In this document: in pieces, positions 12,296 through 60,352 of the stretch
How positions within the stretch are numbered: the first letter of the stretch is position 1
How the letters are laid out: every line of letters starts with the position of its first letter
Assembly: GCA_030490835.1 (NCBI GenBank)
Contig: CM059971.1
Location: 53,678,012-53,742,011, forward strand
Source: Annona cherimola
Taxonomy: Eukaryota > Streptophyta > Magnoliopsida > Magnoliales > Annonaceae
DNA: 64,000 nucleotides
Direction of reading: 5' to 3'
The notes under the pieces: generated by a model
Databases searched by the model: none
What the model saw: the letters and a program-made list of their open reading frames with translations, nothing else
What the model was told of the DNA's origin: nothing
Position numbers and translations under genes: made by a program

Positions 12296-12339
12296 AATAA
12301 TAATAATAATAATAATATATGTATATATGTATATATATA

Positions 12340-12800: not shown

Positions 12801-12938
12801 AAGAAAGAAACTTTTTTTACCTAAAAGAAAAATAATCTTAAGAACTTACGTCCTCTTTTCTTTCAGGGTGAGAGAGCTTCTCCAGGTTCTATCTCGCTGT
12901 TGTGTTGAAGTTCTCTTTTTTTTAGAAGCCAAGCTGGG

Positions 12939-15172: not shown

Positions 15173-17954
15173 TGTGGCGCCCCCAACCTAAGATGTCACA
15201 TCCTGAGCCTTACTCCAAGATCTTATTGATTGACAAATGTGAATTAGGATTGTTGCCCTGATCATGCGGCGGGTTCTTAATTGGATCTCGTCCAAATTTT
15301 TTTTAGTTTCATTCCTTTTCCTTCATCGTATCATTTCTTTACATTTTACTTCATTCATATCATAAGCGACGATACATTTGTAAATCGTCGCACTTGGTAT
15401 TTTAAAAATACCCTTTGGCTTCCCTTTCATTCATATTCTTATTCATGATCTTACAACCTGACAGTTGTCATTAACTACACATATTATTCATAACATCTCA
15501 ACTTGCTCTTTTACATTAAAGGTCCTCTTGACCTAATCATGATATTTTCATTCCATACTTGTATATATACATTCAATTATTAGTTCACATAGAACTTAAA
15601 ACTTTAAATAAGTTCACATACGTCAACTTAAAACTTTAAGACATACCATCTCATTCATCGTGGCTAATAATTTTAGCCCACATGGGTACCATCTAATACC
15701 TTTCCCTAATTGTTCAGGTCTACGACCTCTTAAGCTTCCCGGTACCTATCTAAGGTTTGGAAAAACAAAACATGAATGATAACTCATTAAGCAAGCATTT
15801 TATCTTTTAGGCAAGCACTTCCCTTTAAAGCATTTTCATAAACATCTTTTCTTAAAATCTTTTGAATGCCACGTCTAGGCTTTTCAAGGAAATGCATACG
15901 AGAATAACCTTTTTTTAGGTAATTCTCTTTATCTTGTGTGAACATTTATAATGTTCCAAGATATTTTACATAAAATCTTCTTTTGCCAATGACATTTTTA
16001 TATCAAAAATATTTTTCTCGTAAATCTTTGTTAGCCAGTTGACATTCTTATGTCCTAAAATATTTTTGACATAACCCTTGTTGGCAACGAACATTTTTAT
16101 GTCCTAAATATCTTTTGACATAAGCCCTTTTTTCGCAACGGACATTCATATGTTCCAAAATATTTTTGACTTAGGCCTTCTTTAGCAATGAACATTTTTA
16201 TGTCCAAAAATATTTTTCCACATAAACCTTTTTTTCATAATCCCCATTTTGGGGCTTGTTTATAGCAAACGAGACGAAAAAAAATTATCCTTTTTCATGA
16301 AAGCATTTGCATAGCAAACATTTCATCTCGTCCTTGATATTTACAACTTTTTGTGTAAAACACCCTTAGGGTAACCTTTTTGTATCGGCTCATAAATCCC
16401 ATTTAGGATAACTTTTCGTATAAATGCTTTTGTGTCCCAGTCTTTGGATTTTTAAGAGAAAAACATATGCAAATGTATTTCTCCTCATCCTGTATTGACA
16501 CTTAGCAAGTGATCATTCTGCCTTTTGAAAGAGAATCCATCATTAACAGCACGCGAGCTAGGCGACTGTTCCTTAATCCTTCTCCCATCTCAAGAAGGGC
16601 GCCACGGGCCTCTTGGAATTCCTTAGCGACTTGGCTATATGTAGAGTGGGCCTTGGAACATCTCTGACTATGCTCTACAACTGGCCTATTCCTTGTATTG
16701 GTGCACCATACATCATCATCATAGATGTCCATATGCTAGCATGATCTCTTGAAACATCACAAACCGCAATCCATGTGGTTTAAAACATCACAGACTGCAA
16801 CCCGTGTCCTTTTAAACTATCTTAAAAAAAATATCAAAGACCACAATCCGTGTCCTTTTAAATCATTTTGAAAAATATCACAGACCGCAATCCATGTCAA
16901 CCTGTAAAGTGAGCGCCCCCACTTTAAATAAGTTATCATTTGAAATCTAGTTTTAGGATGACCCCCTTAAATACTTTTAGAAACATTTTAGGTAAAATAT
17001 TTTGATAATCGTTTGTAATGTTTGAGAAAATAATCTTTTCTAAAAATATTAGTCGTAATAAATCTTAAAATCATCATGATAACGAAACTTCAAAGCTTTT
17101 GAATTTTCAAGAATAAACCATGTATTGCCCTAGCATTTTCTTGGTTTCCATTTTGGGCTTTTTGCCCACAAAGGTTATGCAATTGCATCATTCCCCTTTT
17201 ATCCACCCTGGTATCATATCCTTATTCCACATACCACTCTTGTCATTTTTGTATAAAGAGGGGCTTGCATAACCTTTCGTATGCTATTTTAGCAACCCGA
17301 AATCAAACCATTTTATGAAATCAACTTATCGGGTTGGTCGTCCTTAAACTCCTTTTTAACAACATCCATATAAATATTTTTCAAGACATTTTCAAAATAT
17401 TTCTATCTTTAAAGGAAATAAAAACTTTCCTAATACCATTTCAAATTGATGGACCATGTCCAAATCATTATTTATGTATAAGTGTCTTCGTTTATGTATT
17501 AGTATCATAGAATGGAAAAAACCAATCTTTTTCTACAAATCAAATCTCTTTTTCATTTTCTTTCATAAACACACTTGTTTTTCACAAAATCTCATGGGAG
17601 TAGACTCTAAACTTGTTTGTAAGTATTACTTTGTGAAAAAGTCTAACTCTCCCTTTTTCTTTATAAAATCTTTTTGAAAATCACATCATGAGAAATTGCT
17701 CTCTTGTAAGCAAATTCTTAAAATCATCAACATAAAACATTCCTAATCCTTGCAACACTTGTGATAAAATAATTTTCTTAAACAATGTTGCTTTCTTCCC
17801 ATGAAGCAATCTTTGAGGCTTTTCATTAAAGCCATCATTTTCAAAACTTATGCTTGCCCACTTTTAAGAAATTCATAAAAGCATCAACATAAGCATCTTA
17901 AATCATTTCAACACATAAGAGGAAATCAATATTTTGGAAAGTTCGCTTGCTTAC

Positions 17955-18001
17955 CTGAGATAGCCTTAATCCCTTTCTTCCATACGTTTCCTTGCCTTTA
18001 C
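17955..18001 (-). promoter_or_regulatory. Predicted LTR mini-exon of F (47 nt)
   Basis: On the minus strand the block is preceded by TTTATCTAG and followed by GTAAGCAAGCG, so it is bounded by a canonical acceptor and donor. It ends ...GCTATCTCAG. The same block with the same borders is found in A, B, C and D. Confidence 0.5.
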
Positions 18002-18640: not shown

Positions 18641-19347
18641 TGTGAAACCCCAACCTATGTAGGACTCAATGGTATGCATTGAACATATATATTTGATTTA
18701 TATGTGATTTAAATGAATTTTGAATGATTTATGGATGATTGTATGATTTAATGATATTTTGCAATTAGGGTTTAATTAAGAATAGTGATTAAAAATTTAA
18801 TCGCCGGAGCCCAAAATGAGTCGGTATGACCCGAGGGGCTTAATGAGGATTTAAAGGTGACAATGTGTTATGAATAATCATGTTAATAATCATGATTTAA
18901 TTTATAGAGATTAAAGTGTAATTATGGAATTAAGATGAAAAATGGTAGAAAATTCATAACTTGACGCCTACAAGGCGGATTTCGATGAAATTTAAAAGGT
19001 AAGATCACGACGGTGGGCCCAATCTTATGAATGGATTGGATTAAGGGAATCATGATGGGATTAGGGTGATAATTAATTATTTTTATCCCAAATTCAAAAG
19101 ATAAATTCAAGTGGTCATAACTTGAGTTAGAAACGTCGGTTTGAGATGAAATTTGAAATGATGGAATAAAATTATGAAATCTATGAGATGAATGGAATGG
19201 ATTAAGCTAATTATTATGGGAAGTTGCTTTCTTGGAGAGCAAGTAAGAAGTTACTTAAGAACTAAGTAAAGAGAGGCAATTTGGGAAGGTAAAAATGGAA
19301 TTTACTAAAATGCCCTAAGGATTGCTTAAGCACCAAGAAAAGTGACT

Positions 19348-19355
19348 TATAAAAA
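19348..19355 (+). promoter_or_regulatory. TATA box of LTR A
   Basis: TATAAAAA within GTGACTTATAAAAAG, about 700 bp into the LTR. The equivalent places in LTR B (28096, CCCTATAAAGCC) and LTR F (49069-49062 on minus, TATAAAAG) also have TATA boxes at the same distance ahead of the first donor, which supports a promoter role. Confidence 0.6.
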
Positions 19356-19398
19356 GAGAAAAAAAAGAGAGCAAGGGCTGGATGTTCCGGCAAAGGAG

Positions 19399-19405
<7 letters not shown>

Positions 19406-19458
<53 letters not shown>
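19406..19458. repeat. (GA)n microsatellite
   Basis: An uninterrupted 53 nt AG/GA run, flanked by imperfect GA repeats to about 19490. It sits between the TATA box and the first splice donor of LTR A, so it would be in the transcribed leader. Confidence 0.95.
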
Positions 19459-19466
<8 letters not shown>

Positions 19467-19595
19467 CAGAGAGGAGAGGAAACTAAGGGGAGAAAAATTC
19501 TCCAAAAATCCAACAAGCCTCACATGACCCCAACAGCAAGGAAAGGAAGAAAAGAAGGGAATTTCATGTGCTCAAAGGAAGGATTACCAATTAAT

Positions 19596-19606
19596 CAAGT
19601 AAGTAT
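19596..19606 (+). promoter_or_regulatory. Conserved splice donor 1 in LTR A
   Basis: CAA|GTAAGTAT with the GT at 19599-19600, nearly the full U1 complement. The same string lies at the same position after the TATA box in LTR B (GT at 28278) and in LTR F on the minus strand (GT at 48779-48778), although the surrounding sequence differs between the families. Confidence 0.55.
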
Positions 19607-20150
19607 ATATTAATTTTGATTTTATACTTCAAATTTGGAAGTTATATGATGTTATCAATCAAAATATAAACGAAATAGTAAACGAAATATTTTCACCATG
19701 AAAATTTGTTTACAAGCTCATTATATGATTATTAAGGGATGAAAAAAATTTAAGATTGAAATATTAATCAGGTTTTAAATTAAAAATCCGAGAAGATCAA
19801 CCTAAATAGGGTAGAATGGGTGATGGGATTATCTGTACCAAATGATTTTTAATAATTTTTATACAAGGAATTTTGGATAAAAAGTTTACATGATATATAA
19901 GACATATTGAGGATAACACGACCAAAATAAAAATTAGGTTTCGATGGGTATAAATACACCCCATAATTTACGTGATTCAGGATGTCTAAAAAGGGATGCT
20001 GCTGTCCATCAGAGTAAAAATACCAAAATAAATATAAATACTAAATATTTCATGCTGAAAATATTTATTTTGGTTAATTCATATAATTATTAGGTATAAT
20101 AGAAATTTTAGATCAAAACTACTTGATTTGATATTAATTCAAGATTTTGA

Positions 20151-20171
20151 GAATTCAGTGTGTCTGAATTC
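20151..20171 (+). repeat. Perfect 8 bp hairpin (GAATTCAG / CTGAATTC)
   Basis: Stem 20151-20158 and 20164-20171 with loop TGTGT. One of many short perfect hairpins spread through the A-type LTR. The corresponding hairpin in D is recognisable at about 61335-61355. Confidence 0.8.
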
Positions 20172-20980
20172 AGCATGATGGACATCTTAAGGAATAAATC
20201 AAGATAAATATTAAATTTCAGATTTTTGTAATGGATTTTGACTTATAATGGGATATCAATCATGATTTAGTGTAATTCATATGATGATTTATGAATAGGT
20301 TGCTGATTTTATAAGGTATGGAACCTAGGGTTGCATATATGACTCGATTTTTTCATTTTTATGTTAAAAATTGTATGGAAATGAGATTAAATAATTTATG
20401 GAAGTTATGAAGGGTAAAATACCCTAGTATTAGGGTAAATTTTAATCCCAAAAGTATTTGGGAAGACGAGCCCCAAATCTGATTTTTATAAATTTTATGA
20501 AAAGATGTCCAAATGGGGTGAAAATGGTACTCGAAATGGATGAGTAAGTTGCTATATGGAAACCATTTAATTATGGGATTCAAATATGTGTTAATACCCT
20601 AAATTTGGGTTAATAAAATTATGGTTTAAGGCTGGAAAAGTTGGATTAAAAATCTGTTTAAATCATGTTGCTAAGAGAGCATTGAAATGACGAAAAACGG
20701 ATTCTAAAGTTGCTGTTTTGGGAACCCCATGATAAATGGATTATAAATCCAAAATTAAATAATAAATTATGTGTTAATTAAGGGGTTTAATCATGCTTGA
20801 ATTAGAGACAAGTTTCTGTTTTGAAAAAGTTTAAGAAACACATAAGTATGTGTTGAAAAATGGACTTGTATCGAAGGATGGGTATGAATAAATGATATAT
20901 GGATTATGTAAGTTGTTAAAATGAAAAAATGCATAACAACATGATGAAAAATGTGTATTAGGTTACTGTTTAAGTAAATA

Positions 20981-21009
20981 ATAATAATCTCAAATTTTGA
21001 GATTATTAT
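20981..21009 (+). repeat. 14 bp perfect inverted repeat
   Basis: Arms 20981-20994 and 20996-21009 are perfectly complementary around one central base. The core is ATCTCAAA / TTTTGAGAT. The copies in F (around 18345-18370) and D (60661-60690) keep the pairing. Confidence 0.85.
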
Positions 21010-21304
21010 ATGATGTCTAAGTTAGTAGCTAAGTGCTTACAATGAGCACCATTGTATGAAAAATTGAAAATATGTTAAAAATGATAAATGGAGGTAATGA
21101 AATTCTAAATAATGATTTAATAAAGGATTATTATATGTATGTAAGTTTACCCTACATAAGGGTATTAAAAATGAATGGATAATTTGATATGTATAGGCTA
21201 TGTCGATACGTATGAATACCCGACTTGAAAAGACAAGTGGGTTAAGCTAGATGAACTTATGTAGGTTGGAAAACCTAAAGAATATAAGTATTTGAAGATG
21301 ATGC

Positions 21305-21334
21305 AAATAAATGAAATGTTATTTTCATTTATTT
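21305..21334 (+). repeat. 12 bp perfect hairpin just upstream of the mini-exon
   Basis: Arms AAATAAATGAAA (21305-21316) and TTTCATTTATTT (21323-21334) with a 6 nt loop. The right arm is also the polypyrimidine-like tract of the predicted acceptor at 21335-21336, so folding could mask that splice site. Confidence 0.75.
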
Positions 21335-21336
21335 AG

Positions 21337-21384
21337 GCAAAGACCAGGAAAAGAATGGAAGGAAAGGGATTATGGCGATCTCAG
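21337..21384 (+). promoter_or_regulatory. Predicted LTR mini-exon of A (48 nt)
   Basis: Preceded by TTTATTTAG and followed by GTAAGCAAGCG. Begins GCAAAGACCAGG and ends GCGATCTCAG. Equivalent blocks: 3' LTR 45010-45057 (48 nt), B 29619-29662 (44 nt), C 52172-52215 (44 nt), D 60306-60352 (minus, 47 nt), F 17955-18001 (minus, 47 nt). The borders are conserved better than the middle. Lengths are not all multiples of three, so a noncoding leader exon is more likely than a coding one. Confidence 0.55.
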
Positions 21385-21542
21385 GTAAGCAAGCGAACTT
21401 TCTAAAATGCTATTTTCTTTCTATGTGATTGATATGATTGAAATGTTTATGTTTATGTTTTAATGAATGGGCAAGCACAAGTTTTGGAAAATGATGGCTT
21501 TAATGAAAATTCGTAAGTTTTGGAAAAGAATGGCTTTAAGGA

Positions 21543-23262
21543 TGTAACGCCCCATTCATAAAAATACTCAATAACTAATCAACGGCGCTACACAATCTAA
21601 GAAAAATTCGGCAGCATCTCCCCATAACATACAAGGGGTAATATGGAATACATGACCTGATATTCATAACATTTCCATCTGTAACATTCAATCCATTTTA
21701 TATACTTGCATCTTCATATAATAAGAACATTCATATAGAAGGAAATCATTAAATATTTTCCTTACACATCAAACAGATATAATAGTCATGCATATGTGCA
21801 TCAACAAGGATTACAATCCAATCTGAAATACCAAATACATTATAGTTGTCAAAGCGAATCCGCCTAAGTAATTGTCTACATATATGATTATCAAAAAGAG
21901 TACAAGTTTAAAAGAACTGAAATCAACATATTGTGCTAGGGTATCTCATGTTTGATCTTCAACTTGTTCCATCCTTAAGTTCCCCTTCTGACCTGCGATC
22001 TAAAAGCACAATAACAAATGATATGAGTCTAAATAGACCCAGTAAGTAGATAGTGGTTAGCACAAAATGGAAATAAGCATAATGATGGATGCTCATATAG
22101 TGATGAAGCTAATACACATGGATCCAATACCCACTCCCAAGATCGTATGCATATAACCATACACACAGATTGAACAACACGACCAATCATCTACTCATGT
22201 CCATCAAGGGCCATGAACAACCCTCTCCTCATGTCAATCAGGGGCCATGAACAACCCTTACAACCAACTATTTGAGATAACGCACCATACATAACAGACA
22301 ATGAAACACATCGCAAACCACGCATACAACATCAACACAATTCAGATTCAACACTTAGATCTGTCACACAAGCATTTTATCAAACACATGATAGGTGCGA
22401 AATGAAAGAACCTTCAATTCATACTCTCGATTGGGGCAAATCAATTCACGTCACATTCCAACAATATAACAACTGCTAAGAAGTCTTTTACATCATAGAA
22501 ATCACGCATTCAAAGTAAATTCACCATGAACCCTAACTGTTACGAACTCTACGCCTAATACCATGGAGTCGTTAGAAACCATACATTCCCTCTAGCCTCG
22601 CATCGCGTTTAATATAAAATTTCATCACTAAATCGAGAAGGGGCGACATCTACTTACTTGAATCGAAATTTCCCCCAAAAATAGTGCTCCAGACTTAGAC
22701 GGAGAGATTCGGAACTTCCACGATTCGAGTCGATGATCCTCAAACAGTCGGTAGAGCTTCCTTGAATGAATCTGTGGCTAGCCCGAACTGAATGGTGGGG
22801 AAAGAAGAGAAGACGCAGAGAACGAAAAGAGAAGAAGAAGGAAGATAGCCGGGTGCGAGATGAAAAAAGGAACCCTAGCGCGCGCGGGCTTCCTTTATTA
22901 CTGAATCCCTATCGGGTCGGGTCGGAACATGGATCGGGTCTAATTGCAATTAGTAATTTACTCTCCCACTCATACGACTTAATAATTAAAATTTTCTTCG
23001 GGGGCGCTGCCCCCTTGACCCCCGCGACCTGACCGGGCAGGTCGAACACCGTACCTACTCTGCGAGGGAAACAATAGTCATAGTGCCCATCAATGGAACG
23101 CTAATCATACATGCATATATGCACTATACATCCCCCAAATGTCGTATCCATGTATGTTATGTATCCATTAATATCGTAAAATTCTTACTAGCATGTTCAC
23201 AAGTTACCTCATAAATAGAGAAAAGTTATAATAAAAATAGAATAAAATACCTGGTCCTGACA
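21543..23262 (-). mobile_element. Solo LTR (1720 bp) with perfect 5 bp target duplication
   Basis: Bounded by TGTAACGCCCC and ...GGTCCTGACA, with AAGGA duplicated at 21538-21542 and 23263-23267. The intact sequence at the empty site is present in the 3' LTR of A near 45257, which confirms the insertion. Read on the minus strand it starts TGTCAGGACC and ends GGGGCGTTACA, a form typical of chromovirus LTRs. It contains a perfect hairpin GGGGGC-GCT-GCCCCC at 23000-23014. No internal domain remains, so it is a solo LTR from recombination. Frames inside (for example 22766-23032) are not genes. Confidence 0.9.
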
Positions 23263-23701
23263 AAGGAAAAGCCTCAAGGTTTGCTTCATGGGAAGCAAGC
23301 AATACGTTTTAAGATGAGGATTTTATCATCAGTGTTGCCAAAGATTGGCAATGCTTTATGTTAATGGAATTGAGAATTTTGCTTTTGAGTAAGCAAGTTC
23401 TCTATGATAATGTTTTCAAAGGATTTCATGTTTGATATCGATGGTTTTAAGAATTCTCTTTTAAGTAAGCAAGTTCTTTATGATGTTGTTTCAAAAGTAT
23501 TTTATAAGAAAGAGAGAATTTTTTCCTTTTTCACAAAGCAACAAATGTAAATAAGTTTTGAATTTCTTTTATGATGTTTTATGATAAATAATTATGTTTA
23601 CGAAAGAAAAAGAAAACAGGAATTGATGTATTGATATTTAAATATAAACAATGATTTGGACATAGTTCATATGTTTTGAAATGATATTCGAAAAAGTTTT
23701 G

Positions 23702-23722
23702 ATTTCCTTTAGATAAGGAAAT
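23702..23722 (+). repeat. Perfect 8 bp hairpin (ATTTCCTT / AAGGAAAT)
   Basis: Stem 23702-23709 and 23715-23722 with loop TAGAT, in the predicted second intron of LTR A. Other perfect hairpins nearby: TTGCTTC-ATGG-GAAGCAA (23281-23298) and TTGCCA-AAGAT-TGGCAA (23335-23351). Confidence 0.75.
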
Positions 23723-24262
23723 GTATGTTGAAAATATTTTGAAAAATATTTATACGGATGTGTTGAAGGGGATTAAAGGATGACCAATCTCTCATGTTGA
23801 TTTCATAAAATGGTTTGATTTCGGACTGCTAAATGGTATGCAAAAGATTATGCAAGCCCCTTATGTAAAAATGGTATAATAGAAAGGTGGACAATAATTT
23901 GATTATTAGGGTGGTTGAGAAGGGGTAGCATAATTGCATAACTTTTGTGAGCAAAAGGCCTCGAAATGAAAACCAAATAAATGTTAGAAAATATATGGTT
24001 TAATTTTAAAAGTTCAAAGGTTTTGAAATTCTTTTATTATAAGGGTTTTCAAGATGTATTGTTTCTCAAACGTTTCAAATATTTATCAAAATATTTTATT
24101 CAAAATGGTTTTAAAAGAATTTCAGGAAGGTCATCCTAAAACTAAATTTCAAATGACAACTTGTTTAAAGTGGGTGCGCTCGCTTTATAAGTTGACACGG
24201 ATACGGGTTGCGGTCTGTAATACTTTAAACCAAACAGACTGCGGTCCGTCATAATAGTGTAT

Positions 24263-24425
24263 GGTGCACCAGTACAAGGAATAGGCCGGTTGTAGAGCAT
24301 GATTGGGATGACCGGGACCCACTCTACATATGGCCAAGTCGCTAAGGGATGACAGGAGTGCCAGCGGTGCCCTCCCTGAGATGGGAGCAGGATAAAGGAA
24401 CAACCACCTGGCTAGCGTGCTGTTA
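24263..24425 (+). other. Block conserved in all the chromovirus LTRs here
   Basis: Contains GTAGAG...CTCTAC (stem 24292-24297 / 24322-24327), GGCCAAGTCGCTAAG, CCAGCGG-GCC, GATGGGAG and CCTGGCTAGC. The same order is found at 46366-46520, 29935-30085 (B), 52455-52555 (C, weaker) and, on minus, 58857-59010 (D), 63130-63285 (E), 16548-16712 and 49383-49530 (F). It is the most conserved long stretch between otherwise diverged LTRs. Function unknown. Confidence 0.7.
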
Positions 24426-24764
24426 AGGATTTTCTTCCAAAAGGCAGCATGATCACTTGCTAAGTGTCACTACTGGATGGGGAGAAATGCATTTGCATAC
24501 ATTTTGCTTTTCAAAAGCCCAAAGATTGGGATATAAAAGTATTTATATGAAAAGTTATCCTAAATTGGATTTTTATGAGCTTTATGTATAAGTTACCCTG
24601 AAAGAAAGGGTGTTTTACACAAAAGTGTAAATAACAGGAATAAAAGGAAATTTTTTTATGCAAATGCATTTATGGAAATGGTTTATGTATCTTATATGCC
24701 TTGTTTGTTATAAACATGCCCCAAGATGGGGATTATGAAAAGAATTTATGTCAAACTTGTTTTT

Positions 24765-25304
24765 GGACATAAGAATGTCCATTATTAAAGAGCTTAAATG
24801 AAAAGTGTTTATGGACATGAGAATGTCCAATGCAAAAGTGTCTTAAAGAAAGGTGTTTTAGAACATATGAATATCCATTGCCAAAGGAAGCTATGTGAAA
24901 AATGTTTTGGGACATTAAATGTCTCTGACTAAAAGATTTTATGATGAAAAATATTTTTGGACATAAAAATGTCCTTTTGCCGAGAAAGGCTTATGTAAAT
25001 AATGTTTTAGGACATGAGAATGTCCTCCCTTGCCAAAGGATTTATGAGAAAAATGTTTTGGACGTAAAACGTCCACTGACAAAAGATAGTTTTATGTAAA
25101 TGTCTTGGAACATTGAAAATGTTCACTCAAGACAAAAGGGAATTAATTAAAAATGGTAAAACATGTATGTTTTTCCTTAACAAGCCCAGACGTGGCTTGT
25201 AAATGATTTTAAGAATGAATATTTTATGATAATGTTCAAGGACGTAGAACTGTCCTCATGAACAAAGGATTTCATGATAATATTTTAGGACATATAAATG
25301 TCCT
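24765..25304 (+). repeat. Regular array of ~10 hairpins, GGACAT-loop-ATGTCC, ~49 bp spacing
   Basis: Hairpins at 24765-24780, 24812-24829, 24861-24876 (decayed), 24909-24925, 24959-24974, 25009-25026, 25059-25075, 25101-25134, 25239-25256 and 25287-25304. The first eight are spaced 47-50 bp. Stems are 6-7 bp with loops of 3-4 nt. The spacer often contains TGCCAAAGGA and AAAATGTTTT. Unit 7 has GGACGT/ACGTCC, a compensatory double change. Unit 8 has GAACATT/AATGTTC inside a second perfect stem TGTCTTG/CAAGACA. A hairpin ACAAGCC/GGCTTGT (25180-25200) sits between units 8 and 9. Confidence 0.85.
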
Positions 25305-25420
25305 CAAGAAAAAGGTGTTCCAAATGTTTAATGAAATGATTTCCAAGGAAGTCTTGCCCTAAAAGATAACATGCTTGCTTACTGAGTTATCACTCGCGTT
25401 TTATTTTCCAAACCTTAGAC

Positions 25421-25422
25421 AG
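25421..25422 (+). promoter_or_regulatory. Predicted splice acceptor 3 in LTR A
   Basis: TTTTATTTTCCAAACC then TTAGACAG|GTAC. The same pyrimidine tract and CAG or AG border is present in B (AG at 30352-30353), C (52705-52706), the 3' LTR of A (47471-47472) and, on minus, D (57986), E (62345) and F (15746). It lies about 430 bp before the LTR end in A. Confidence 0.5.
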
Positions 25423-25860
25423 GTACTGGGAGACTCAAGCGGTCGAGGACCTAAGAAATGGAGAAAAGGTACGAGATAGTACCATGTGGGCTAAAAGGAT
25501 TAGCCATGGTGAGTGGAATGATATGAATGAAAGTATTCAGGTATGCTGACATATATGAATTTATTTAAAGTTCTAAGTTCTAGGAGAACTAATGTATGTC
25601 TGGAATGACAATGTCATGAATAGGTCAAGAAGGCCTATGATGTATAACAGTATGTTGAAATGGTTTAAAGGATATGTACAAGTGTACCATTGCTTATGTT
25701 ATAAATGCAATAACGATGAATGAAGAAACGAAAAAAATTTTGGACGAGTTCCAATTAAAATCTCGCCGCGTGCTCAGGGCAACAATCCTAATTCATATTT
25801 ACCAATCAATAAGGTCTTGAGGTAAGGAAGTGACGTCTCGGTTTGGGACGCCACAGGAGT

Positions 25861-25872
25861 TGGTATCAGAGC
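25861..25872 (+). other. Primer binding site of element A (tRNA-iMet)
   Basis: TGGTATCAGAGC, a perfect 12 nt match to the 3' end complement of plant initiator tRNA-Met, separated from the LTR end (25855) by GGAGT. Confidence 0.95.
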
Positions 25873-26777: not shown

Positions 26778-28095
26778 TGTAGAACCCATATGTATGTACT
26801 AATCATATAGATGATATTTATATGTGAATTATTGAATTATGAATGATTTATGTGATTTTGCTAATTATTGCAATTAGGGTTAAGGATTAGCGATAATGAT
26901 GTGATTGATCATTTTGAGCTAAAATGAGACAATGGGATTAGAGCAAATTTTTGTTGATTTAAATGTGCAAATACATCATGGAAAATCATTTTAATTCATT
27001 TAATATGAATTATGAGCATTGGTGAGATAATTGATCATTTTAATGGAAAAACACTAGAAAATTCATAACTCAACGCCTGTAAGGCGGATTTAAGTGAAAT
27101 TTGAAATGGTAGTTAATGATGTTGGACTTGGTATTATGGAATTATTGGGTAATGGAAATTCTTGATGAAATGAGTGTTATGATTTATTGATCGTATCTCA
27201 ATTTCAAACGTTAACTTTAAACGGCTATAACGGGAGCTAGGAAAATTGGATTAAGATGAAATTTGAAACGGTTGAATGAAATTATGAGATGATTAATTTG
27301 GAAGGTTTGTATTAAGCTTAAAATATTGAGAAAATACCTGCATTGAAAAAGGTGAGCATGGTTGACTAATGAACCTCAAAAGTACCTTTCAATTAATGCT
27401 AGAGTACAATGCATAATTGCATGATTTTAATGAGAGTTGATGTGTCAAATGCAGCCCATTTCTAAGGTATTTTATATATTATTGTGAAATTCTAAAATCC
27501 AAATAAAATCCCAGCAATAAAGGTTTATCACGATGAAGCTACAAAGTGCACACAAGAGGCATAGGTAATGTGGCACTATGGGGACATCCAAGGGGTTATA
27601 TTGCTGCATATTTTGATTTTTTTATTTTTTAAAATATGTACTTATGTTGCTGATATGTAGGGACACAAATATTTTCATTCAATCATGCAAATTTCCAGCA
27701 ATAAAAATTATAAAATATAGCTGAATGGGAGAGAGAAAATGAGGACAGCATGTGGGGCAAGTGACGTGCAAAAATCTGCTGGTTTTCTGCCATTTTTTAA
27801 ATTTTTTTAACACAAAATTAATACATAAATTAAAGGGTAATGAGATGTATAATTTACCCTTAAATTAGGGTTGAAAGAAAATGAAAAATTGCTGGAAAAA
27901 TGGGCAGCAAGGGACGTGATGGCTGGACAGCTTGGACGGCCATGAATTAAAGCAGTTTTTGGATTTTTTAAAAATTGGTAAAATGCAATTTTACTTGGCT
28001 AAGAATTTGCCAACACATGATGAGGATAAGGAAACATTTAAGTGTGTGGAAAATGCAGAAAATTGTGGGGTCCACAACTAGATTTGATCCAGCCC

Positions 28096-28102
28096 TATAA
28101 AG
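28096..28102 (+). promoter_or_regulatory. TATA box of LTR B
   Basis: TATAAAG within GCCCTATAAAGCC, about 180 bp before the first predicted donor, matching the arrangement in LTR A and LTR F. Confidence 0.55.
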
Positions 28103-29618
28103 CCATGCACGTTCACATAGCATGGATTTTGGAAAGTTGGCTAAGTGTTGGATTTTTCACCCCAAAGCAACAGCAGCAACTCACGTCCATTTTGGCCAGC
28201 AAGAGAAGGAAGAAAAGAAGGGAATTTGTGGAGGAAATCATCTCCAAGTGATTAGAGTTGAGTTAGCACTAAACCAAGTAAGTATATGTGTTGTCTGAGT
28301 TGGTTATTTTGAGTTTTTAAACTCCAAAATGGGAATATGAAAGGTATGCTTCAAGAATCCTTAAAATGATGATTTAACATGACTTTGATTTAATATGGAA
28401 TTGGTATTATATTATATGCATGAATTTTCATGATTTAGATGATGAAAATAAAGTTTGCAATGATATATGAGTTGAAAACTCAAGTTGACAAACCCTAAAT
28501 CTAAAAGACAAGTTGTTGTTTGATATGGATAATATTTTTAGTTTATTAAACATGTTTTAATGAAGGACATATGTTGAATTGAGATTAAGGAATGAATTTT
28601 AGCAACTATGGACGGTAAAGTCATGTTTATGACCCGAAATCTTCATTTTTAGGTTAAAAATGCTATGTAAATAGGTTTGCATGTTTTGTGAATGATATGT
28701 AGGGTAAAATACCCTAGGTTTAATGTATTATTTATTCTCAAAAGGATTTGAGAAAATAAACTCAAATCTGATTTTTATGGGTTTATGAAATGTTGTATAA
28801 ATGGAGTGAAAACGGGACCCGAAATGGGTAGGCAACTTCCTGTTTTGAGAGATTTTAATTTATGGATGTTAAACATGTGTTAATGACCTAAATTTGAATT
28901 AGGAAAAATGGAATTATTTTCTGAAAATTCGGATTTATTAAACTGCTTAGGGTTATGTGTCAAAAGACACGTTAAATGGGTGAAAAACGGGTTCCAAACT
29001 TGCTGTTTTGGAAACCTATGGTAAGTGGATTTAAACCCCATAAAAATACCCTAAATTCAGTGGAAATTAAGGGTAATTATCATGCTTAAATATGGATTAA
29101 ATTTTTTATTTAGAGAATTTTATGATATACATTATATATATGTTGCCAAATGGGCATATGTGAAGTAATAGATATGCAAGGGTGATGAATGACTTATGAA
29201 ATGTGGTTTTGAGAAAAAATGCATAAAATATGATATATTTCATGAATATACATCTGTTTAGAGTGTATAATGATTAATTTCATATTTTAAAATTTATTTA
29301 TGAAATATGAAGTGACGATGTGTGCATAAAAGAAGCACCGATGTGTGTAATTTGAAAAAGGATTGATAAATGGCAAATTGAGGTTAATAAACCTATGTAT
29401 GATAATTATTGAATGAATTTTATGTGATTGAAATGGATACCCTATGTATAGAGTTATATATGTTATGTGTTAGCCGATGAAATGTGTAAAAATGTGCTAT
29501 ACATGTGCATAATGACTGGAGAAGTCAAATAGATGATATATGTGAATGAAATGGGTTGGAAAACTAAATGAAATATGAGGAAAAAAATATATGAAAAAAA
29601 TATATTATTCTCATGTAG

Positions 29619-29662
29619 GCAAAGGCAAAGAAAAAGAGGAGTCGGAAAGCTAAGGGACACAG
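29619..29662 (+). promoter_or_regulatory. Predicted LTR mini-exon of B (44 nt)
   Basis: Preceded by CTCATGTAG and followed by GTAAGCAAGC. Begins GCAAAGGCAAAG and ends AGGGACACAG. The interior is purine-rich like the A copy, but its length differs by 4 nt. Confidence 0.55.
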
Positions 29663-30757
29663 GTAAGCAAGCAAATTTTCTAAATGAATTTTGTTTTCTA
29701 AACTGTGTACATAAATGAAATTTTTTCTCTAACTTGTTTGATGAAATTATTTCTAATATGTTTAAGGATGGTCATTCGTTAGTTAAATGGTGTTGAAATG
29801 ATGTTTTACTTCAAAAGAAATATTATGAAATTTTCTTTGATAAATGCTATGGTAAAATGATGTGATTCTATGTTTCTTATTGAAAAAATCATGCTAGCAT
29901 GTTAAAGATAGAGTTATGATAAAGTTCATGTGCACAAGGTACTAGGTCCACTTGAAGGGTATAAGCGGACCGATTTTCCTCCCTTGGTGTGGCCAAGTCG
30001 CTTAAAATAGGCCCAAGGCCAGCGGCGCCTTCTCTGAAATGGGAGATGACGTGGACGGATGGCCGCCTGGCTAGCTTCCATCATAAGGGAAATATGTTAT
30101 ATATGTTCATGTTGCTTCCATCATAAGGGAAATATGTTATATATGTTCATGTTTTTATGTGGCATTATGCATATCGTACTCGTGATGGGTACAAAATTTT
30201 ATGTTTTCAAGATATAACTTTGAACAAGGTATAAGTTGCTTTCCAAGATGATTTTAAATGCAAAATGTTGCCTGAAATGATTTGCCTAAAAAATGCAAAT
30301 AGCTTGCTTATTGAGTTTTGACTCACGATTTTATTTTCCAAACCCAAAGACAGGTGAAAGACAGGAAATGGCGAAGGAGTAAGCTCCAGCTTGAGAAAGT
30401 CATGGAAAAACTTTAGTACTTTTATGATATAAAATAATTTATGTTGAATGATTGTAATCATTTGAATGTTTTATGTTGATGACTATGGTTAATACATGCA
30501 GCGACATATGAATTATGTATTTGATGAAATATTTTTAATCAGCATGTTTTGTATATGATAATGGGTTGGAAATGACCTAGATATGTTTGAGATGGAAATA
30601 TGAGAAATCAAGTCCTTATGAGAAAATATTAAATTGGATAAACATCCATTAAAACCCGTCGTGTGATAGGGCAACAATCCTGATCACGTTTACCAATCAA
30701 TACGATCTCGAGGTAAGGCTCAGGATGTGATGCTCGGGTTTGGGGCGCCACAGAGCT

Positions 30758-30769
30758 TGGTATCAGAGT
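30758..30769 (+). other. Primer binding site of element B (tRNA-iMet)
   Basis: TGGTATCAGAGT, 11 of 12 bases of the initiator tRNA-Met site, 5 nt after the LTR end. Confidence 0.9.
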
Positions 30770-32168
30770 ATGGATTGGTAAATAGGCGTGGAAAATTTCT
30801 AAGTATAGGAAATTGAAAGAATATGATGAGATATGCATGATTACACATGATTATGTGATGAATTAGATATGAGTATATGATAATTAGGTAGCTTAGAACA
30901 TGATGAAATGCATGTCATATGATGATAAATTATGTTGCAATACAATTTGATTGCTATGTTTGTACAGATGGCGGATAGGGGTAAGCGGATGATGAGTGTG
31001 GAGGAGTTGAAAAAGGAGATAGAAGAGGAGGAGAGGAGACAGCGAAGGGAAGAGAATATGCACAGGTGGTGGGAATCCCAGCACAACACACCACAGTTTC
31101 CCGTAGTTTCCTCGAGTTAACATGAACAAGGTCTAAGAGAGCCCTCCAGTTACAAACCTAGGGTACGAGTTCTACCAAGAACATATCTCGAAATTCCCCG
31201 GACTCCCGGTGTTCCAACTGACAGAGTAGACCCACGGGATCTCCAGGACTTTTGGAGAAAGACTCAGACACCTACACCCCCCGACGCAGGCCCGTGGTAT
31301 AGGTTCGTTGATGGATTTGTTCAGTTTCGCTATGGAGCACCCTGGGATAGACTCCACCAGCGAGAAATAGACATGGCCCACTATATTGAGAAGCGTCTGT
31401 TGGTCCCGAGTTAATGGCGATTACCCAAGAGGGGAGGGGTGAATTGGATAATTAAAAAATTACAACTTAAATAGAAACTTTACCCCAGATTGATCTAGTC
31501 CCCTTTATGAAGAAACAAAAAGAAAGCAATAGTGTAAAGAGCAGAAACAAAAATGAACACACAAGATTTTATAGTGGTTCGGGCAACCTTCCTACTCTAC
31601 TCTTCCAAGCTCACACCCCTTGTGACTTGGGTTCCACTATGTATTCCGCGAATACAACTAGAGTCTCCACTCTCTTCTAGATTCTATCTCTAGGGGGCAT
31701 ATACAACCAGAGCATCTGCTCTCTTCTAGATTCTAGCTCTAGGGGGCATATACAACCACAACACAAGTAGGTGACGAGTTCCACTTCAATCACACACTAC
31801 TTTGCTCATACTTGATCTTAGTTACCCAAACTAAATCAAGTTCAATGCAACAAGAAATAACAAAAGAAAGTTTCTACACGTTACTGTTGTGTAGACGCAG
31901 ATTTGGCGCAGAGAAGAACTAGTAGTGTAGGCTTAGAGATTCAGCAAGCATCTCTTGGCAGTTTGGAAGCAAAGTTCTTCTACTAAATGTTGGCTTGATC
32001 ACTTAATGCTCTTGAAGATAGGAGTTATGCACACTTAATGAATTCTCAGCTACCCTCCTCGTTCATATTGATTGCCTTTTATAATTGTGGAGGGAATCCG
32101 AACGTTTGGAAGTAGGTGGCGCGCATTTAATGCGCCAACGTTCGAAAATTTTTCGACCGTTGCGACCC

Positions 32169-34194: not shown

Positions 34195-34239
34195 TTCTTT
34201 GATATACTTGGACTGGTTGATGAAAATCCCTTCATTTAG

Positions 34240-44766: not shown

Positions 44767-46159
44767 GTAATGAACTTCCAAATAATGATTTAATGAAGGA
44801 GTATAATATGTATGTAAGTTTACCCTACATAAGGGTATTAAAAATGAATGAATGATTTGATATGTATAGGCTATATCGATACGTATGAATACCCGACTTG
44901 AAAAGACAAGTGGGTTAAGCTAGATGAACTTATGTAGGTTGGAAAACCTAAGGAATATAAGTATTTGAAGTCGATGCAAATAAATGAAATGCTATTTTTA
45001 TTTATTTAGGTAAAGGTAAGGAAAAAAATGGAAGGAAAGGGATTATGGTAATCTCAGGTAAGCAAGCGAACTTTCTAAAATGCTATTTTCTTTCTATGTG
45101 ATTGATATGATTGAAATGTTTATGTTTGTGTTTTAATGAATGGGCAAGCACAAGTTTTGAAAATGATGGCTTTAATGAAAAGCCACAAGTTTTGGAAAAT
45201 GACGGCTTTAATGAAAAGTCGTAAGTTTTGGAAAAGAATGACTTTAAGGAAAAGCCTCAAGGTTTACTTCATGGGAAGCAATACGTTTTAAGATGAGGAT
45301 TTTATCATCAGTGTTGCCAAAGATTGGCAATGCTTTATGTTAATGGAATTGAGAATTTTTCTTATGAGTAAGCAAGTTCTCTATGATAATATTTTCAAAG
45401 GATTTCATGTTTGATGTCGATGGTTTTAAGAATTTGCTTTTAAGTAAGCAAGTTCTTTATGATGTTGTTTCAAAAGTATTTTATAAGAAAGAGGAAATTT
45501 TGCCCTTTTTCACAAAGCAACAAATGTAAATAAGTTTTGAATTTCTTTTATGATGTTTTATGATAAATAATTATGTTTACGAAAGAAAAAGAAAACGCGA
45601 ATTGATGTATTGATATTTAAATATAAACAATGATTTTGACATAGTTCATATGTTTTGAAATGATATTTGAAAAAAGTTTTGATTTCCTTTAGATAAGGAA
45701 ATCTATGTTGAAAATGTTTTGAAAAATGTTTATACGGATGTGTTGAAGGGGATTTAAGGATGACCAACCTCCTATGTTGATTTCATAAAATGATTTGATT
45801 TCGGGCTGCTAAATGGTATGCAAAAGATTATGCAAGCCCCTTATATAAAAATGGTATAATAGATAGGTGGACAATAATTTGATTATTAGGGTGGTTGAGA
45901 AGGGGTAACATAATTGCATCACTTTTGTAAGCAAAAGGCCCCGAATTAGAAACTAAAAAAATGTTAGAAAATATATGGTTTAATATTAAAAATTCAAAGG
46001 TTTTAAAATTCTTTTATTATAAGGGTTTTTAAGATGTATTGTTTCTCAAACGTTTCAAATATTTATCAAAATATTTTATTCAAAATGGTTTTAAAAGAAT
46101 TTCAGGAAGGTCATCCTAAAACTAAATTCCAAATGACAACTTGTTTAAAGTGGGTGTGC

Positions 46160-47350: not shown

Positions 47351-47909
47351 TCCTCAAGAAAAAAGTGTTCAAAATGTTTAATGAAATGATTTCCAAAGAA
47401 GTCTTGCCCTAAAAGATAAAATGCTTGCTTATTGAGTTATCACTCATGTTTTGTTTTCCAAACCTTAGACAGGTACTGAGAGACTCAAGCGGTCGAGGAC
47501 CTAAGAAATGGAGAAAAGGTACGAGATAGTATCATGTGGGCTAAAAGGATTAGCCATAGTGAGTAGAATGATATGAATGAAAGTATTCAGGTATGGTAAC
47601 TTATATGAATTTATTTAAAGTTCTAAGTTCTAGGAGAACTAATGTATGTATGGATGAATGTATGTCTAGAATGATTAGGTCAAGAAGGCCTATGATGTAT
47701 AACAGCATGTTGAAATGGTTTAAAGGATATGTACAAGTGTACCATTGCTTATGTTATAAATGCAATAATGATAAATGAAGAAACGAAAAAAATTTGGACG
47801 AGTTCCAATTAAAATCCCGCCGCGTGATCAGGGCAACAATCCTGATTCACATTTACCAATCAATAAGGTCTTAAGGTAAGGAAGTGACGTCTCGGTTTGG
47901 GGCGCCACA

Positions 47910-49090
47910 TGTACCCTTCTTATTACACATATAATATGTGTTTTCTAATCTTTTTCAAAATAGAAATTTGCCCACTATTTTGGCGTAACTAAAACACTTA
48001 ATTAGCACGTAATTAAGGGTATTTTCGTAGGATTAAAATCCCTTAATCACATGGTTCCAAAATAGTAACTTTGTTACCGTTCTTTCCCCCTTTCAACGTC
48101 CCTATGGACATATGTTTCAAAACGGATTTTTACCTCTTTAATTTCCATTCTTAAACATACTCCTCTTGTCCCATATTTAGGGTATTTACATGGATTTAAA
48201 GTCCATAATTTAAGTTGCCCAAAACAGCAACTTTCCATGCACATCTTGGCCACCCTTGGACGTCCACATATAAATTCCAAAAAATCAGATTTTTGCATTT
48301 TCTCCCATCCTCATGTTGGATGTCCTATGTGCCCTAAATTTAGAGCATTTTACCCTTTAATTCATCCATGTATTACTTGGTTTGGTCCATGTACAAATTT
48401 CATCTCAAAAGAGTGGAATCTTGTCCACATCGTTAACCCTAGGTTTTACCTTTCTAAGGTACTTAAATCATGCCCAATCCAACATATATAAATCATTTAA
48501 TCATTAATCATAATCCAAACATGGAACATGCTTAAAACAGCAACATAATTGGGAACTTCCCAAAAATTCCAGCCAGGTATTCCTAGGGTAATTAACACTA
48601 AAGTCATGCTTAACTCCCTTAAACCCTTGAATTGGATCTTCCCATTCATTTAGCATTTAGAACCCTTATTAAGGGCTTCATAACTCATCATTTAGGGTTC
48701 ATAATGGATCAAATTTATGACCCATGAATGAAGCAAAAAAACTTAGAATTAAATGAATCAAACTTGATTCAATACTTACTTGAAGTTGTGAAATCTTGCT
48801 TCCACCTTTCCTAGCTTGGTTCCTTCCCTTTCTTCTCCTCTTTTCTTCTTCCTTTTCCTCTTTTCTTGGTTGTCCACCTTGCTGGATTTTTTTCTCTTTA
48901 TTTTTTTTCTCCCAAAACGTCCACTAAATGGGACGTAAAGTGCCCTTTTCTCTCTTTTACATAGGGCTGCCTTGGATGTCCCCCACTCGCTACCCCTTTT
49001 TGTGGATTTTCTCCTCACATTGATGCCTTGCAAAACACGTCCAAGGGCTGCCCATTTGCCCCTTTTATAAGGGATAAAATCTACCTTGGT
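47910..49090 (-). mobile_element. LTR F, second part (resumes after element A)
   Basis: Minus-strand continuation of the LTR interrupted at 18640. It contains donor 1 (GT at 48779-48778 on minus) and a TATA box (49069-49062 on minus). The 129-codon minus frame at 49165-48776 covers the predicted leader exon and is basic and low-complexity. I do not treat it as a gene. Confidence 0.75.
49062..49069 (-). promoter_or_regulatory. TATA box of LTR F
   Basis: TATAAAAG on minus (CCCTTATAAAAGGGG), about 280 bp before donor 1, as in A and B. Confidence 0.5.
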
Positions 49091-52500: not shown

Positions 52501-53012
52501 CCCCCTCTAATGTGACTGAGTCGCTGATATATGGTCGCCTAGCTAGTGTACCATCTAATGAAGATTTAAGGCATGAATGTGAAATGTGCATATGCATGTG
52601 CATTATTTATGAAATGCCAAATTTTGGAACGAAAATGTTTACTTACATAAAAATACTTGCTTACTGAGTCTAGTACTCACATTTTGTTTTCCCAACCTTA
52701 GATTAGTACGGTAAGGTTTAAAAGAATGTCTCAATTTAGAGACTCTTAGGTTGTATTGTTCTCTTATATTTTGATGAATGGTGAGGTTTTGAGAGTACAG
52801 TACTATAAGGTTACAAAGATTGATGGTGTAAAGGAATTTTAGTGATTTGTAAATATTATATGATTTTAATTGCCAGTAAATGATTGCTTATAAATTGAAA
52901 TCAGATTGAATTGAAAATCCCACCACATGAACAGGGTGACAATCTTGCTCACAGTTTACTAAATAAACGATCCTGGAGTAAGGTTCCAGTGCCTCGGGTT
53001 GGGGGCGCCATA
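49545..53012 (+). mobile_element. 5' LTR of chromovirus-type element C (3468 bp)
   Basis: Starts TGTGAAACCC and ends ...GGGGGCGCCATA (the final CA decayed to TA), with a PBS 5 nt later. It is diverged from A and B but keeps the mini-exon (52172-52215), third acceptor (52705-52706) and conserved block (52455-52555). The first donor and TATA box are not clear. A 12 bp class hairpin GGTCCT-AATT-AAGGAC-like is at about 49862-49879. Confidence 0.8.
52172..52215 (+). promoter_or_regulatory. Predicted LTR mini-exon of C (44 nt)
   Basis: Preceded by TTTGTTTAG and followed by GTAAGCAAG. Begins GAAAATGAAAAG and ends GATATTCTAAG. Flanking sequence is largely unlike A and B, but the borders and length are kept. 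Confidence 0.5.
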
Positions 53013-53935: not shown

Positions 53936-54174
53936 AGATGGGTCTAGCAGATTTTTCTTTTGATGTTGATGGTATGTATGAGTGTGTAATATGTGTTGGA
54001 TATATTTTGATACTAAAGCACTTTTTTTTGTAAAAACAAACTAATCCATACTGGTGTATGTGAAAAAGAAATGGTTGTTATTGATATTTGTGTTTGTTAT
54101 AAATAATTGTGTGTGATTATTTTAAGGTAATAAGGGATATTACTAATATAATTTTTCTATATCTAGATAACACC
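53936..54174 (+). other. Spacer between accessory ORF and gag of element C
   Basis: AT-rich, no ORF. Ends at the gag ATG. Confidence 0.5.
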
Positions 54175-60305: not shown

Positions 60306-60352
60306 CTGAGATCGCCATAATCCTTTTCTTCCATTCTTTTCCTTGCCTTTGC
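60306..60352 (-). promoter_or_regulatory. Predicted LTR mini-exon of D (47 nt)
   Basis: On minus, preceded by TTTATCTAG and followed by GTAAGCAAGCG. Begins GCAAAGGCAAGG and ends GCGATCTCAG, close to the A copy. Confidence 0.55.

What the first reader, a model, noticed from the sequence alone, without database searches (positions are those of the whole stretch)
19348..25855. Long chromovirus LTRs appear to encode a spliced 5' leader with a conserved 44-48 nt mini-exon
Seen: in LTR A a TATA box (19348) is followed by CAA|GTAAGTAT (GT 19599), then TTTATTTAG|48 nt|GTAAGCAAGCG (21337-21384), then TTAGACAG| (exon from 25423), the LTR end and PBS. LTR B has the same order (28096; 28278; 29619-29662; 30354), and so do F (49069; 48779; 18001-17955; 15745) and the preserved parts of C and D. 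The splice-site borders are kept although much of the sequence between families is not. Known: Ogre elements splice within pol and some copia elements splice to make gag RNA. I do not know of a described two-intron leader lying inside the LTR. Inference: splicing would shorten a multi-kb leader for translation, while unspliced RNA serves as genome.
Basis: partly seen in the sequence, partly recalled or inferred. Interest (0 to 1): 0.87.

Follow-up and report, generated by a model that had tools for sequence, protein, structure and literature searches.

The report
Retrotransposon LTRs with a mini-exon leader
The long end-repeats of several related, probably plant, jumping genes carry the same splice-site borders around a 44-48-base mini-exon, and splicing there would likely shrink a leader thousands of bases long and full of false start codons to under a thousand bases, giving a translatable RNA beside an unspliced genome RNA.

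Summary
The mini-exon (44-48 nt, TAG|GNAAA...AG|GTAAGCAAG) is in six of eight LTRs examined (A, B, C, D, F and an extra one, H). E has lost the region; G, a complete but distant LTR, has the outer donor and acceptor with one intron. A and C are probably two LTRs of one element. The donor AGGTAAGCAAG is the longest word shared by four divergent families. The mini-exon is the best acceptor-donor pair in each of the six, and is T-poor inside T-rich sequence, as plant exons are. Introns 1 and 2 hold 119 of B's 160 leader ATGs. I judge leader splicing likely (0.76); no RNA was available.

Exon 3 need not run to the LTR end: in A-F it is T-poor for only 25-46 nt and then meets a GT. Past the primer-binding site, an AG lies directly before an ATG in B, D and H. 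A third intron may therefore remove the primer-binding site; its donor is uncertain. "Chromovirus" was not tested. Plant retrotransposon introns are known inside gag-pol; the searches made showed no LTR-borne multi-exon leader.

The parts
18641..25855 (+). LTR A (TGTGAAACC...GACGCCACA), 5' LTR of an element whose 3' LTR is probably C
   Evidence: LTR ends and flanks; PBS TGGTATCAGAGC 25861-25872
19378..19598 (+). predicted exon 1 of A (start inferred 30 nt past TATA 19348); donor CAA|GTAAGTAT at 19599
19599..21336 (+). predicted intron 1 of A, T 0.34, 78 ATG
21337..21384 (+). mini-exon 2 of A, 48 nt
   Evidence: donor rank 1 of 285 GT, acceptor rank 1 of 374 AG; top pair, 0 of 300 shuffles
21385..25422 (+). 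predicted intron 2 of A; holds nested solo LTR G
21543..23262 (-). nested solo LTR G with 5-bp TSD AAGGA; donor TTCAA|GTAAGTAG (22657) and acceptor ATCGCAG|GTCAG (21992), one predicted intron of 665 nt
25423..25468 (+). predicted exon 3 of A (46 nt, T 0.13); 3' border inferred
   Evidence: acceptor rank 2 of 155, donor test 0.067
25861..25872 (+). primer-binding site of A
26778..30752 (+). LTR B
28127..28277 (+). predicted exon 1 of B (start inferred from TATA 28096); donor CCAA|GTAAGTATAT at 28278
29619..29662 (+). mini-exon 2 of B, 44 nt, T 0.05
   Evidence: donor rank 1 of 173, acceptor rank 1 of 168; top pair, 0 of 300
30354..30378 (+). predicted exon 3 of B (25 nt); 3' border weakly supported
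   Evidence: fraction 0.364
30758..30769 (+). primer-binding site of B (1 mismatch to the searched word)
30968..31117 (+). first piece of an extra ORF (ORF0) of B, ATG directly after acceptor TTTGTACAG|
   Evidence: acceptor rank 2 of 59
45010..45057 (+). mini-exon 2 of C (LTR piece 44767-47909), 48 nt
   Evidence: ranks 1 of 187 GT and 1 of 192 AG; 0 of 300
47473..47518 (+). predicted exon 3 of C
   Evidence: acceptor rank 4 of 192, donor test 0.112
60306..60352 (-). mini-exon 2 of D (LTR piece ending at 57535), 47 nt
   Evidence: ranks 1 of 279 GT and 1 of 320 AG; 3 of 300
57941..57985 (-). predicted exon 3 of D
   Evidence: acceptor rank 6 of 255, donor test 0.048
62311..62344 (-). predicted exon 3 of E (LTR piece ending at 61947; upstream part lost)
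   Evidence: acceptor rank 1 of 107, donor test 0.049; pair not significant, 138 of 300
48780..49039 (-). predicted exon 1 of F (start inferred from TATA 49069); donor TTCAA|GTAAGTATT at 48779
   Evidence: donor rank 1 of 56 GT in that piece
17955..18001 (-). mini-exon 2 of F, 47 nt
   Evidence: donor rank 1 of 182, acceptor rank 2 of 228; 1 of 300
15700..15745 (-). predicted exon 3 of F
   Evidence: acceptor rank 16 of 228, donor test 0.207
49545..53012 (+). LTR H, a divergent family not in the finding's list
   Evidence: PBS 53018-53029
51122..51269 (+). predicted exon 1 of H (TATA 51095); donor ATATCAG|GTATGC at 51270; not T-poor (0.35)
   Evidence: this donor lay outside the stretch ranked
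52172..52215 (+). mini-exon 2 of H, 44 nt
   Evidence: donor rank 1 of 150, acceptor rank 1 of 161; 6 of 300
53199..53971 (+). extra ORF region (ORF0) of H, broken by stops; ATG (53199) directly after GAAATATAG|
   Evidence: acceptor rank 5 of 49
54167..54177 (+). acceptor-like site TTTTTCTATATCTAG|ATAACACCATG at the gag start of H
   Evidence: rank 1 of 43 AG
57240..57293 (-). stretch that starts with the AG|ATGG of D past its primer-binding site (57529-57518), aligned with the ORF0 start of B and H
   Evidence: rank 3 of 62

Best explanation
The long LTRs of these related Ty3/gypsy elements carry conserved splice-site borders around a 44-48-nt mini-exon, and their transcripts are likely spliced there into a short multi-exon leader. 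Predicted path: RNA starts just past the TATA box. Exon 1 (about 150-260 nt) ends at CAA|GTAAGTA (CAG|GTATGC in H). Intron 1 (0.9-1.7 kb) runs to the mini-exon. Intron 2 (0.5-2.4 kb, longer in A because of the nested LTR) runs to the AGACAG| acceptor in the last tenth of the LTR. This would remove about three quarters of the upstream ATGs (nearly all, if a third intron is also removed) and give a translatable, exportable mRNA, while RNA that escapes splicing keeps the full LTR sequence and primer-binding site and would serve as genome. Shown by calls: the borders, their conservation, their rank, the composition and the ATG counts. Inferred: start sites, splicing itself, use of each RNA, and whether a third intron also removes the primer-binding site.
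For: Without alignment or splice model, AGGTAAGCAAG is the only 11-mer common to A, B, F and H; three 10-mers are shared, two of them inside it; a control with B and F reversed shares none at k of 10 or 11. In three of three alignments it is the longest invariant run, with about 8% of columns invariant. With a recalled plant matrix the mini-exon donor ranks 1 in six of six LTRs that hold it and the acceptor 1 in five and 2 in one. The pair tops all pairs in those six, scores 10.0-12.5, against at most 9.0 in 32 overlapping control tiles and 8.8 in nine antisense stretches. Borders are kept while the mini-exon interior varies in length and sequence. Mini-exon T is 0.05-0.20 against 0.28-0.38 in the introns; plant introns are reported about 15% more U-rich than exons (PMC3735527, one section read). 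Introns 1 and 2 hold 119 of B's 160 and 60 of H's 79 leader ATGs. G has the outer donor and acceptor with one intron.
Against: No RNA, and no intron-less copy: four exon-exon junctions gave no match in the window at up to 4 mismatches. The splice matrix is recalled, not trained. The families share ancestry, so ranks are not independent trials, and A and C are probably one element. H fails at acceptor 2 (rank 51 of 93) and its exon 1 is T-rich; F's acceptor 2 ranks 16 of 228, B's 8 of 132. Donor 1 ranks only 8 of 285 in A and 6 of 173 in B. With two introns only, about 41 ATGs would stay in B's leader. ATG removal partly reflects low T in exons: over the nine exons tested (A, B, F) 10 ATGs are seen against about 15 predicted from composition, while introns of A and B hold about twice the prediction. 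E and G pair tests are not significant (138 and 34 of 300).
Confidence: 0.76

Rival explanations
1. The GTAAG motifs are kept to bind U1 snRNP and so suppress early polyadenylation in the 5' LTR and release of truncated RNA, while splicing itself is rare or incidental.
For: The most conserved word is a donor complementary to U1 (complementarity recalled). A further GTAAG near the LTR end is kept in seven of seven LTRs looked at (A-F, H). [quoted passage not shown]
Against: It does not explain the paired acceptor (rank 1 in five of six), the short T-poor segment between the two, or the outer acceptor kept down to G.
Confidence: 0.1
2. The blocks are cis elements of another kind (packaging, dimerisation, transcription factor binding), and the match to splice consensus is coincidence.
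For: Other conserved blocks in these LTRs (for example ACAATC and CGCCA near the LTR end) have no evident tie to splicing. No Rfam family reaches its gathering score in the window.
Against: Both borders of the mini-exon match splice consensus better than any other pair in the six LTRs, with the composition change of plant exons.
Confidence: 0.06
3. Exon 3 is not short: it runs through the LTR end, primer-binding site and ORF start, so there are two introns and every spliced RNA keeps the primer-binding site.
For: The exon 3 donor is weak by test: fractions of AGs with as good a donor are 0.067 (A), 0.364 (B), 0.112 (C), 0.048 (D), 0.049 (E), 0.207 (F) and 0.713 (H).
Against: A and B would keep 22 and 21 ATGs between acceptor 2 and the LTR-end GTAAG alone. 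T rises from 0.08-0.17 to 0.29-0.33 after the proposed donor in A-F. AG|ATGG past the primer-binding site in B, D and H.
Confidence: 0.4
4. The splice sites work but serve no element function; they are tolerated, or only create host transcripts that start in LTRs.
For: The ORFs of these elements are broken here, and LTR-initiated host transcripts are common (general knowledge).
Against: Conservation of borders across families far above background is not expected of neutral sites.
Confidence: 0.06

Closest known systems
BARE1 (Ty1/copia, barley) spliced gag RNA, PMC3735527 (abstract and one section read)
   Same: Plant LTR retrotransposon whose intron separates RNA pools for translation and replication; U-rich intron, U-poor flanks.
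   Different: One 104-nt intron at the beginning of pr, just past gag, not in the LTR; no mini-exon; different superfamily.
EVD and other Arabidopsis Ty1/copia shGAG splicing, PMC8892269 (passages read)
   Same: Spliced RNA is exported and translated, while unspliced RNA is largely nuclear and the template for RT.
   Different: Splicing makes a short gag RNA and is coupled to early polyadenylation; no spliced leader in the passages seen.
Ogre (Ty3/gypsy, Tat), PMC6317226 and PMC12786077 (passages read)
   Same: Ty3/gypsy element with a partly spliced intron.
   [quoted passage not shown] non-chromovirus.
HIV-2/SIV leader intron in R-U5, and donors in R of foamy and HTLV viruses (recalled; no passage on it seen)
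   Same: Intron or donor inside the LTR-encoded leader, thought to aid translation.
   Different: Animal retroviruses; short leader; no conserved mini-exon between two long introns (all recalled).
Plant 5' UTR introns in host genes (recalled)
   Same: Removal of upstream ATGs and gain of export by leader splicing.
   Different: Here inside a terminal repeat that is copied at every transposition, so splicing must be incomplete.

Membership tests
Ty3/gypsy LTR retrotransposon | gag and RT of Ty3 type | tested here: met
   H: Retrotrans_gag 5.6e-14, Ty3_capsid 5.5e-13, RVT_1 9.5e-38. Tested for H only; the others are placed by LTR likeness.
Ty3/gypsy LTR retrotransposon | LTR with TG...CA ends, PBS, TSD | tested here: met
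   PBS in A, B, D, H; TG...CA for A, B, G, while H ends in TA; TSD AAGGA for G, 4 of 5 for A/C
chromovirus, Tekay/Del clade | chromodomain after integrase and RT clade | not testable with these tools
   No integrase or chromodomain of these elements was identified in the window; two protein searches returned no relative to compare with
spliceosomal (U2) introns of plants | GT-AG borders near consensus | tested here: met
   Mini-exon donor and acceptor rank 1 or 2 in six of six LTRs that hold it, with a recalled matrix; outer borders weaker
spliceosomal (U2) introns of plants | U-rich intron against exon | tested here: met
   Mini-exon T 0.05-0.20, intron T 0.28-0.38; exon 1 of H and G are exceptions
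spliceosomal (U2) introns of plants | spliced RNA | not testable with these tools
   No transcript data held
retrotransposon coding-region introns (Ogre, BARE1, EVD) | intron within or between gag and pol | tested here: not met
   The introns reported here lie in the LTR, upstream of the ORFs
lentiviral leader intron | intron inside R-U5 of the LTR | tested here: inconclusive
   Lies inside the LTR past TATA; R/U5 border unknown, poly(A) site not mapped

The most novel reading that the evidence does not exclude
Splicing in these elements is a genome/messenger switch. Two mini-exons inside the LTR are joined across a third intron that removes the primer-binding site and lands exactly on AG|ATGG of an extra ORF (and, alternatively, on the acceptor just before the gag ATG), so any spliced RNA can be translated but cannot be reverse-transcribed, and only unspliced RNA can be genome. 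In B and D the joint would also trade the pyrimidine at -3 of the ATG for a purine.
Probability: 0.4. Interest if true: 0.86.

Novelty: new variant of a known kind. Interest (0 to 1): 0.72.

Why it matters
How one retrotransposon RNA is both messenger and genome is described as a major question (abstract of PMC3735527), and a 2025 review says plant LTR elements generally lack introns, with exceptions including Ogre and EVADE (PMC12786077, passages). A leader spliced inside the LTR would be a further answer for elements that have multi-kb LTRs. It would help explain how a leader with 79 (H) or 160 (B) ATGs is tolerated, and it is directly testable in public RNA data for any genome with related families. 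If the third intron is real, splicing itself would decide which RNA can be copied.

Tried and rejected
Looking for relatives outside the window: an LTR-end plus PBS pattern gave 0 in viral contigs and 1 in genome contigs (L001, an Anaerolineales contig; the 1,200 of its 8,000 bases that I read look bacterial). A donor word and an acceptor motif gave 25 and 13 viral contigs; none of the 39 fetched loci matches the window by blastn at E 1e-3 (loci counted). The RT protein gave no relative in viral contigs. Two protein searches gave nothing at E 1e-3, so that library may hold no close plant elements. The window's own genome could not be searched: seven requests unanswered.

Rejected: chance splice sites. 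The pair 25778-25821, top in A's downstream piece, as an exon: its acceptor lacks a pyrimidine tract and it lies in the conserved LTR-end block, though its donor GTAAG is a real rival for intron 3. Treating A and C as independent was dropped. H's 5-nt exon 3 was dropped as implausible. RNA families: no Rfam match at gathering score.

In some searches the F piece ran 16 bases into A (18641-18656), and F's exon 3 was one base off; one search used the mended border.

Literature: ten searches of open-access papers only; two searches showed 20 of 89 and 10 of 32 papers. No LTR-borne multi-exon leader in plants was seen in the listings. The one paper with 'intron in the LTR' is an HIV-1 vector paper seen as a listing only. 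The HIV-2 leader intron is recalled.


Full report
What was checked. The window is a nest of LTR retrotransposons. I mapped the LTRs by self-comparison and by reading the sequence. A spans 18641-25855 and B 26778-30752. C is a piece ending at 47909, D a minus-strand piece ending at 57535, E a minus-strand piece ending at 61947. F lies on the minus strand in two pieces (about 49544-47910 and 18640-15173). H spans 49545-53012. G is a solo LTR of 1.7 kb nested in A (21543-23262, TSD AAGGA). A and C flanks TGCAC and TGTAC (4 of 5) and 91-95% identity suggest one element with A and C as its two LTRs. PBS words follow A, B, D and H.

The observation. Every stated coordinate in A, B and F is right. 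The mini-exon is 48 nt in A and C, 47 in D and F, 44 in B and H. H was not in the finding's list. Of eight LTRs, six hold the mini-exon, E has lost that part, and G is complete but has none (no AGGTAAGCAAG within one mismatch inside it). In the aligned region all six share TAGG-N-AAA at the left border and AGGTAAGCAAG at the right, while the interior varies in length and sequence. Donor 1 is CAA|GTAAGTA in A, B, F and G and CAG|GTATGC in H.

More than chance. (1) Three alignment modes of A, B, F and H give AGGTAAGCAAG as the longest invariant run, with about 8% of columns invariant. (2) With no alignment and pieces kept apart, it is the only 11-mer shared by the four; a control with B and F reversed shares three 9-mers and none at k of 10 or 11, against fourteen 9-mers and three 10-mers in the true orientation. 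(3) With a plant splice matrix written from memory, the donor ranks first of 285, 173, 187, 279, 182 and 150 GT sites in A, B, C, D, F and H; the acceptor ranks first in five and second in F. (4) Among all acceptor-donor pairs 20-70 nt apart it is the best in those six, scores 10.0-12.5. Dinucleotide shuffles reach it in 0 (A), 0 (B), 0 (C), 3 (D), 1 (F) and 6 (H) of 300; 32 overlapping control tiles outside the LTRs reach at most 9.0 and nine antisense stretches at most 8.8. Three other stretches scored (A downstream, E, G) gave 19, 138 and 34 of 300. These figures are per LTR, not corrected, and the LTRs are related.

Composition. Mini-exon T is 0.12 (A), 0.05 (B), 0.19 (C), 0.13 (D), 0.17 (F) and 0.20 (H), against 0.28-0.38 in introns. 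The share of same-length intron windows with T as low is 0.004, 0.000, 0.047, 0.002, 0.041 and 0.053. This is the contrast reported for plant introns and for the BARE1 intron (PMC3735527, one section read). Exon 1 is T-poor in A and F (0.10, 0.14), middling in B (0.24), and not T-poor in H (0.35) or G (0.34).

Upstream ATGs. With starts inferred from TATA boxes, the unspliced B leader has 160 ATGs in 2,841 nt. Introns 1 and 2 hold 83 and 36 of them, so two introns alone leave about 41; with the short exon 3 and a third intron, 1 is left in 220 nt. H has 79, of which introns 1 and 2 hold 60; exons 1 and 2 hold 1. A has 259 (nested G included), and its three short exons 6. Introns of A and B hold about twice the ATGs that composition predicts; the nine exons tested in A, B and F hold 10 against about 15 predicted, so part of the contrast is composition.

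The last acceptor and exon 3. A-F share CTTGCTTA followed by a TGAGT- or AAGT-like word, CTCA- or TTCA-like word and a T-rich run, then AGACAG| or GATAG|, and G has a recognisable version. Its rank is 2 of 155 (A), 8 of 132 (B), 4 of 192 (C), 6 of 255 (D), 1 of 107 (E), 16 of 228 (F), 51 of 93 (H) and 1 of 85 (G). In A, C, D, E and F the T-poor stretch after it ends at GTA 34-46 nt on, in B at GTAAGC after 25 nt. Tested alone, that donor is weak (fractions 0.048-0.364 in A-F, 0.713 in H). A second candidate, GTAAG 34-41 nt before the LTR end, is kept in seven of seven looked at (scores 5.7 in A-D, 1.5 in E, -0.2 in F and H). So the place where exon 3 ends is open.

Beyond the primer-binding site. 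B has TTTGTACAG|ATGGCGG at 30968 (rank 2 of 59 AGs), D has TAG|ATGG at 57293 (3 of 62), H has TATAG|ATGG at 53199 (5 of 49); in A the aligned place reads TAG|ATAG. T in the 100 nt before and after is 0.37/0.13, 0.39/0.16 and 0.48/0.12. In H the ORF that starts there is not gag, whose domain lies further on: pieces of it in B and H are alike (17 of 38 residues, E 1e-11; 8 of 17 residues in the first piece, E 4e-05; single comparisons), match no Pfam family, and one piece found no relative in the protein library. The AG just before H's gag ATG (54167) is rank 1 of 43. A spliced leader reaching these acceptors would lose the primer-binding site. This is my most novel reading, at about 0.4.

How it most likely works. 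Transcription from TATA; removal of introns 1 and 2; a shorter leader with fewer upstream ATGs that helps export and translation; unspliced RNA, kept in part of the pool, as genome. The fate of the RNAs is inferred by analogy with BARE1 and EVD. Spliced RNA could not rebuild a full LTR from its 5' end, so splicing must be incomplete in an active element (inference).

Known or new. A 2025 review states that plant LTR elements generally lack introns, with exceptions including Ogre and EVADE (PMC12786077, passages); the survey of plant LTR elements mentions the Ogre intron between coding ORFs (PMC6317226, passages). Leader introns in HIV-2/SIV and R-region donors in other retroviruses are recalled; I saw no passage on them. 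Ten searches of open-access papers showed no LTR-borne multi-exon leader in plants in their listings. I therefore call it a new variant of a known kind. Membership: Ty3/gypsy is supported by H; chromovirus is not tested.

Limits. No RNA, no other genome, a recalled matrix, related copies, inferred start sites, species not known (plant is inferred from the element types and intron composition); H breaks the pattern at acceptor 2.

Noticed in passing
30968-31411 and 53199-53902: An extra ORF (ORF0) between PBS and gag in H and at the same place in B, alike in two pieces, no Pfam family, broken by stops or insertion here
   Followed up: partly
53972-54166: T-rich (0.43) 195-nt stretch between ORF0 and gag of H with a GTATGT start and a TATCTAG end just before the gag ATG; possible further intron or alternative acceptor
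   Followed up: partly
25775-25855, 30668-30752, 52933-53012: LTR-end block conserved in the seven LTRs aligned (A-F, H), with a GATCAGGgcaacaatCCTGATT-like inverted repeat in several of them and a GTAAG donor-like word in all seven
   Followed up: partly
49099-49544: The stretch just upstream of F's TATA (minus strand) matches F's and A's own intron 2 (84% and 80%), as if part of the LTR body was copied into U3
   Followed up: no
18641-47909: A and C look like the two LTRs of one element grown to 29 kb by nested insertions (B and copia-like elements inside)
   Followed up: partly
31398-44766: Elements that look copia-like by eye (ORFs; no domain search made), with direct and inverted copies at about 72-96% identity, nested between B and C
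   Followed up: no
10765-12810: Clusters of AT-rich direct repeats with units near 50 and 100-120 nt containing GCCCGCGGGACA and CCCGG words
   Followed up: no
23463, 45442, 59936 (minus): A second AAGTAAGCAAG word in intron 2 of A, C and D, a donor look-alike
   Followed up: no
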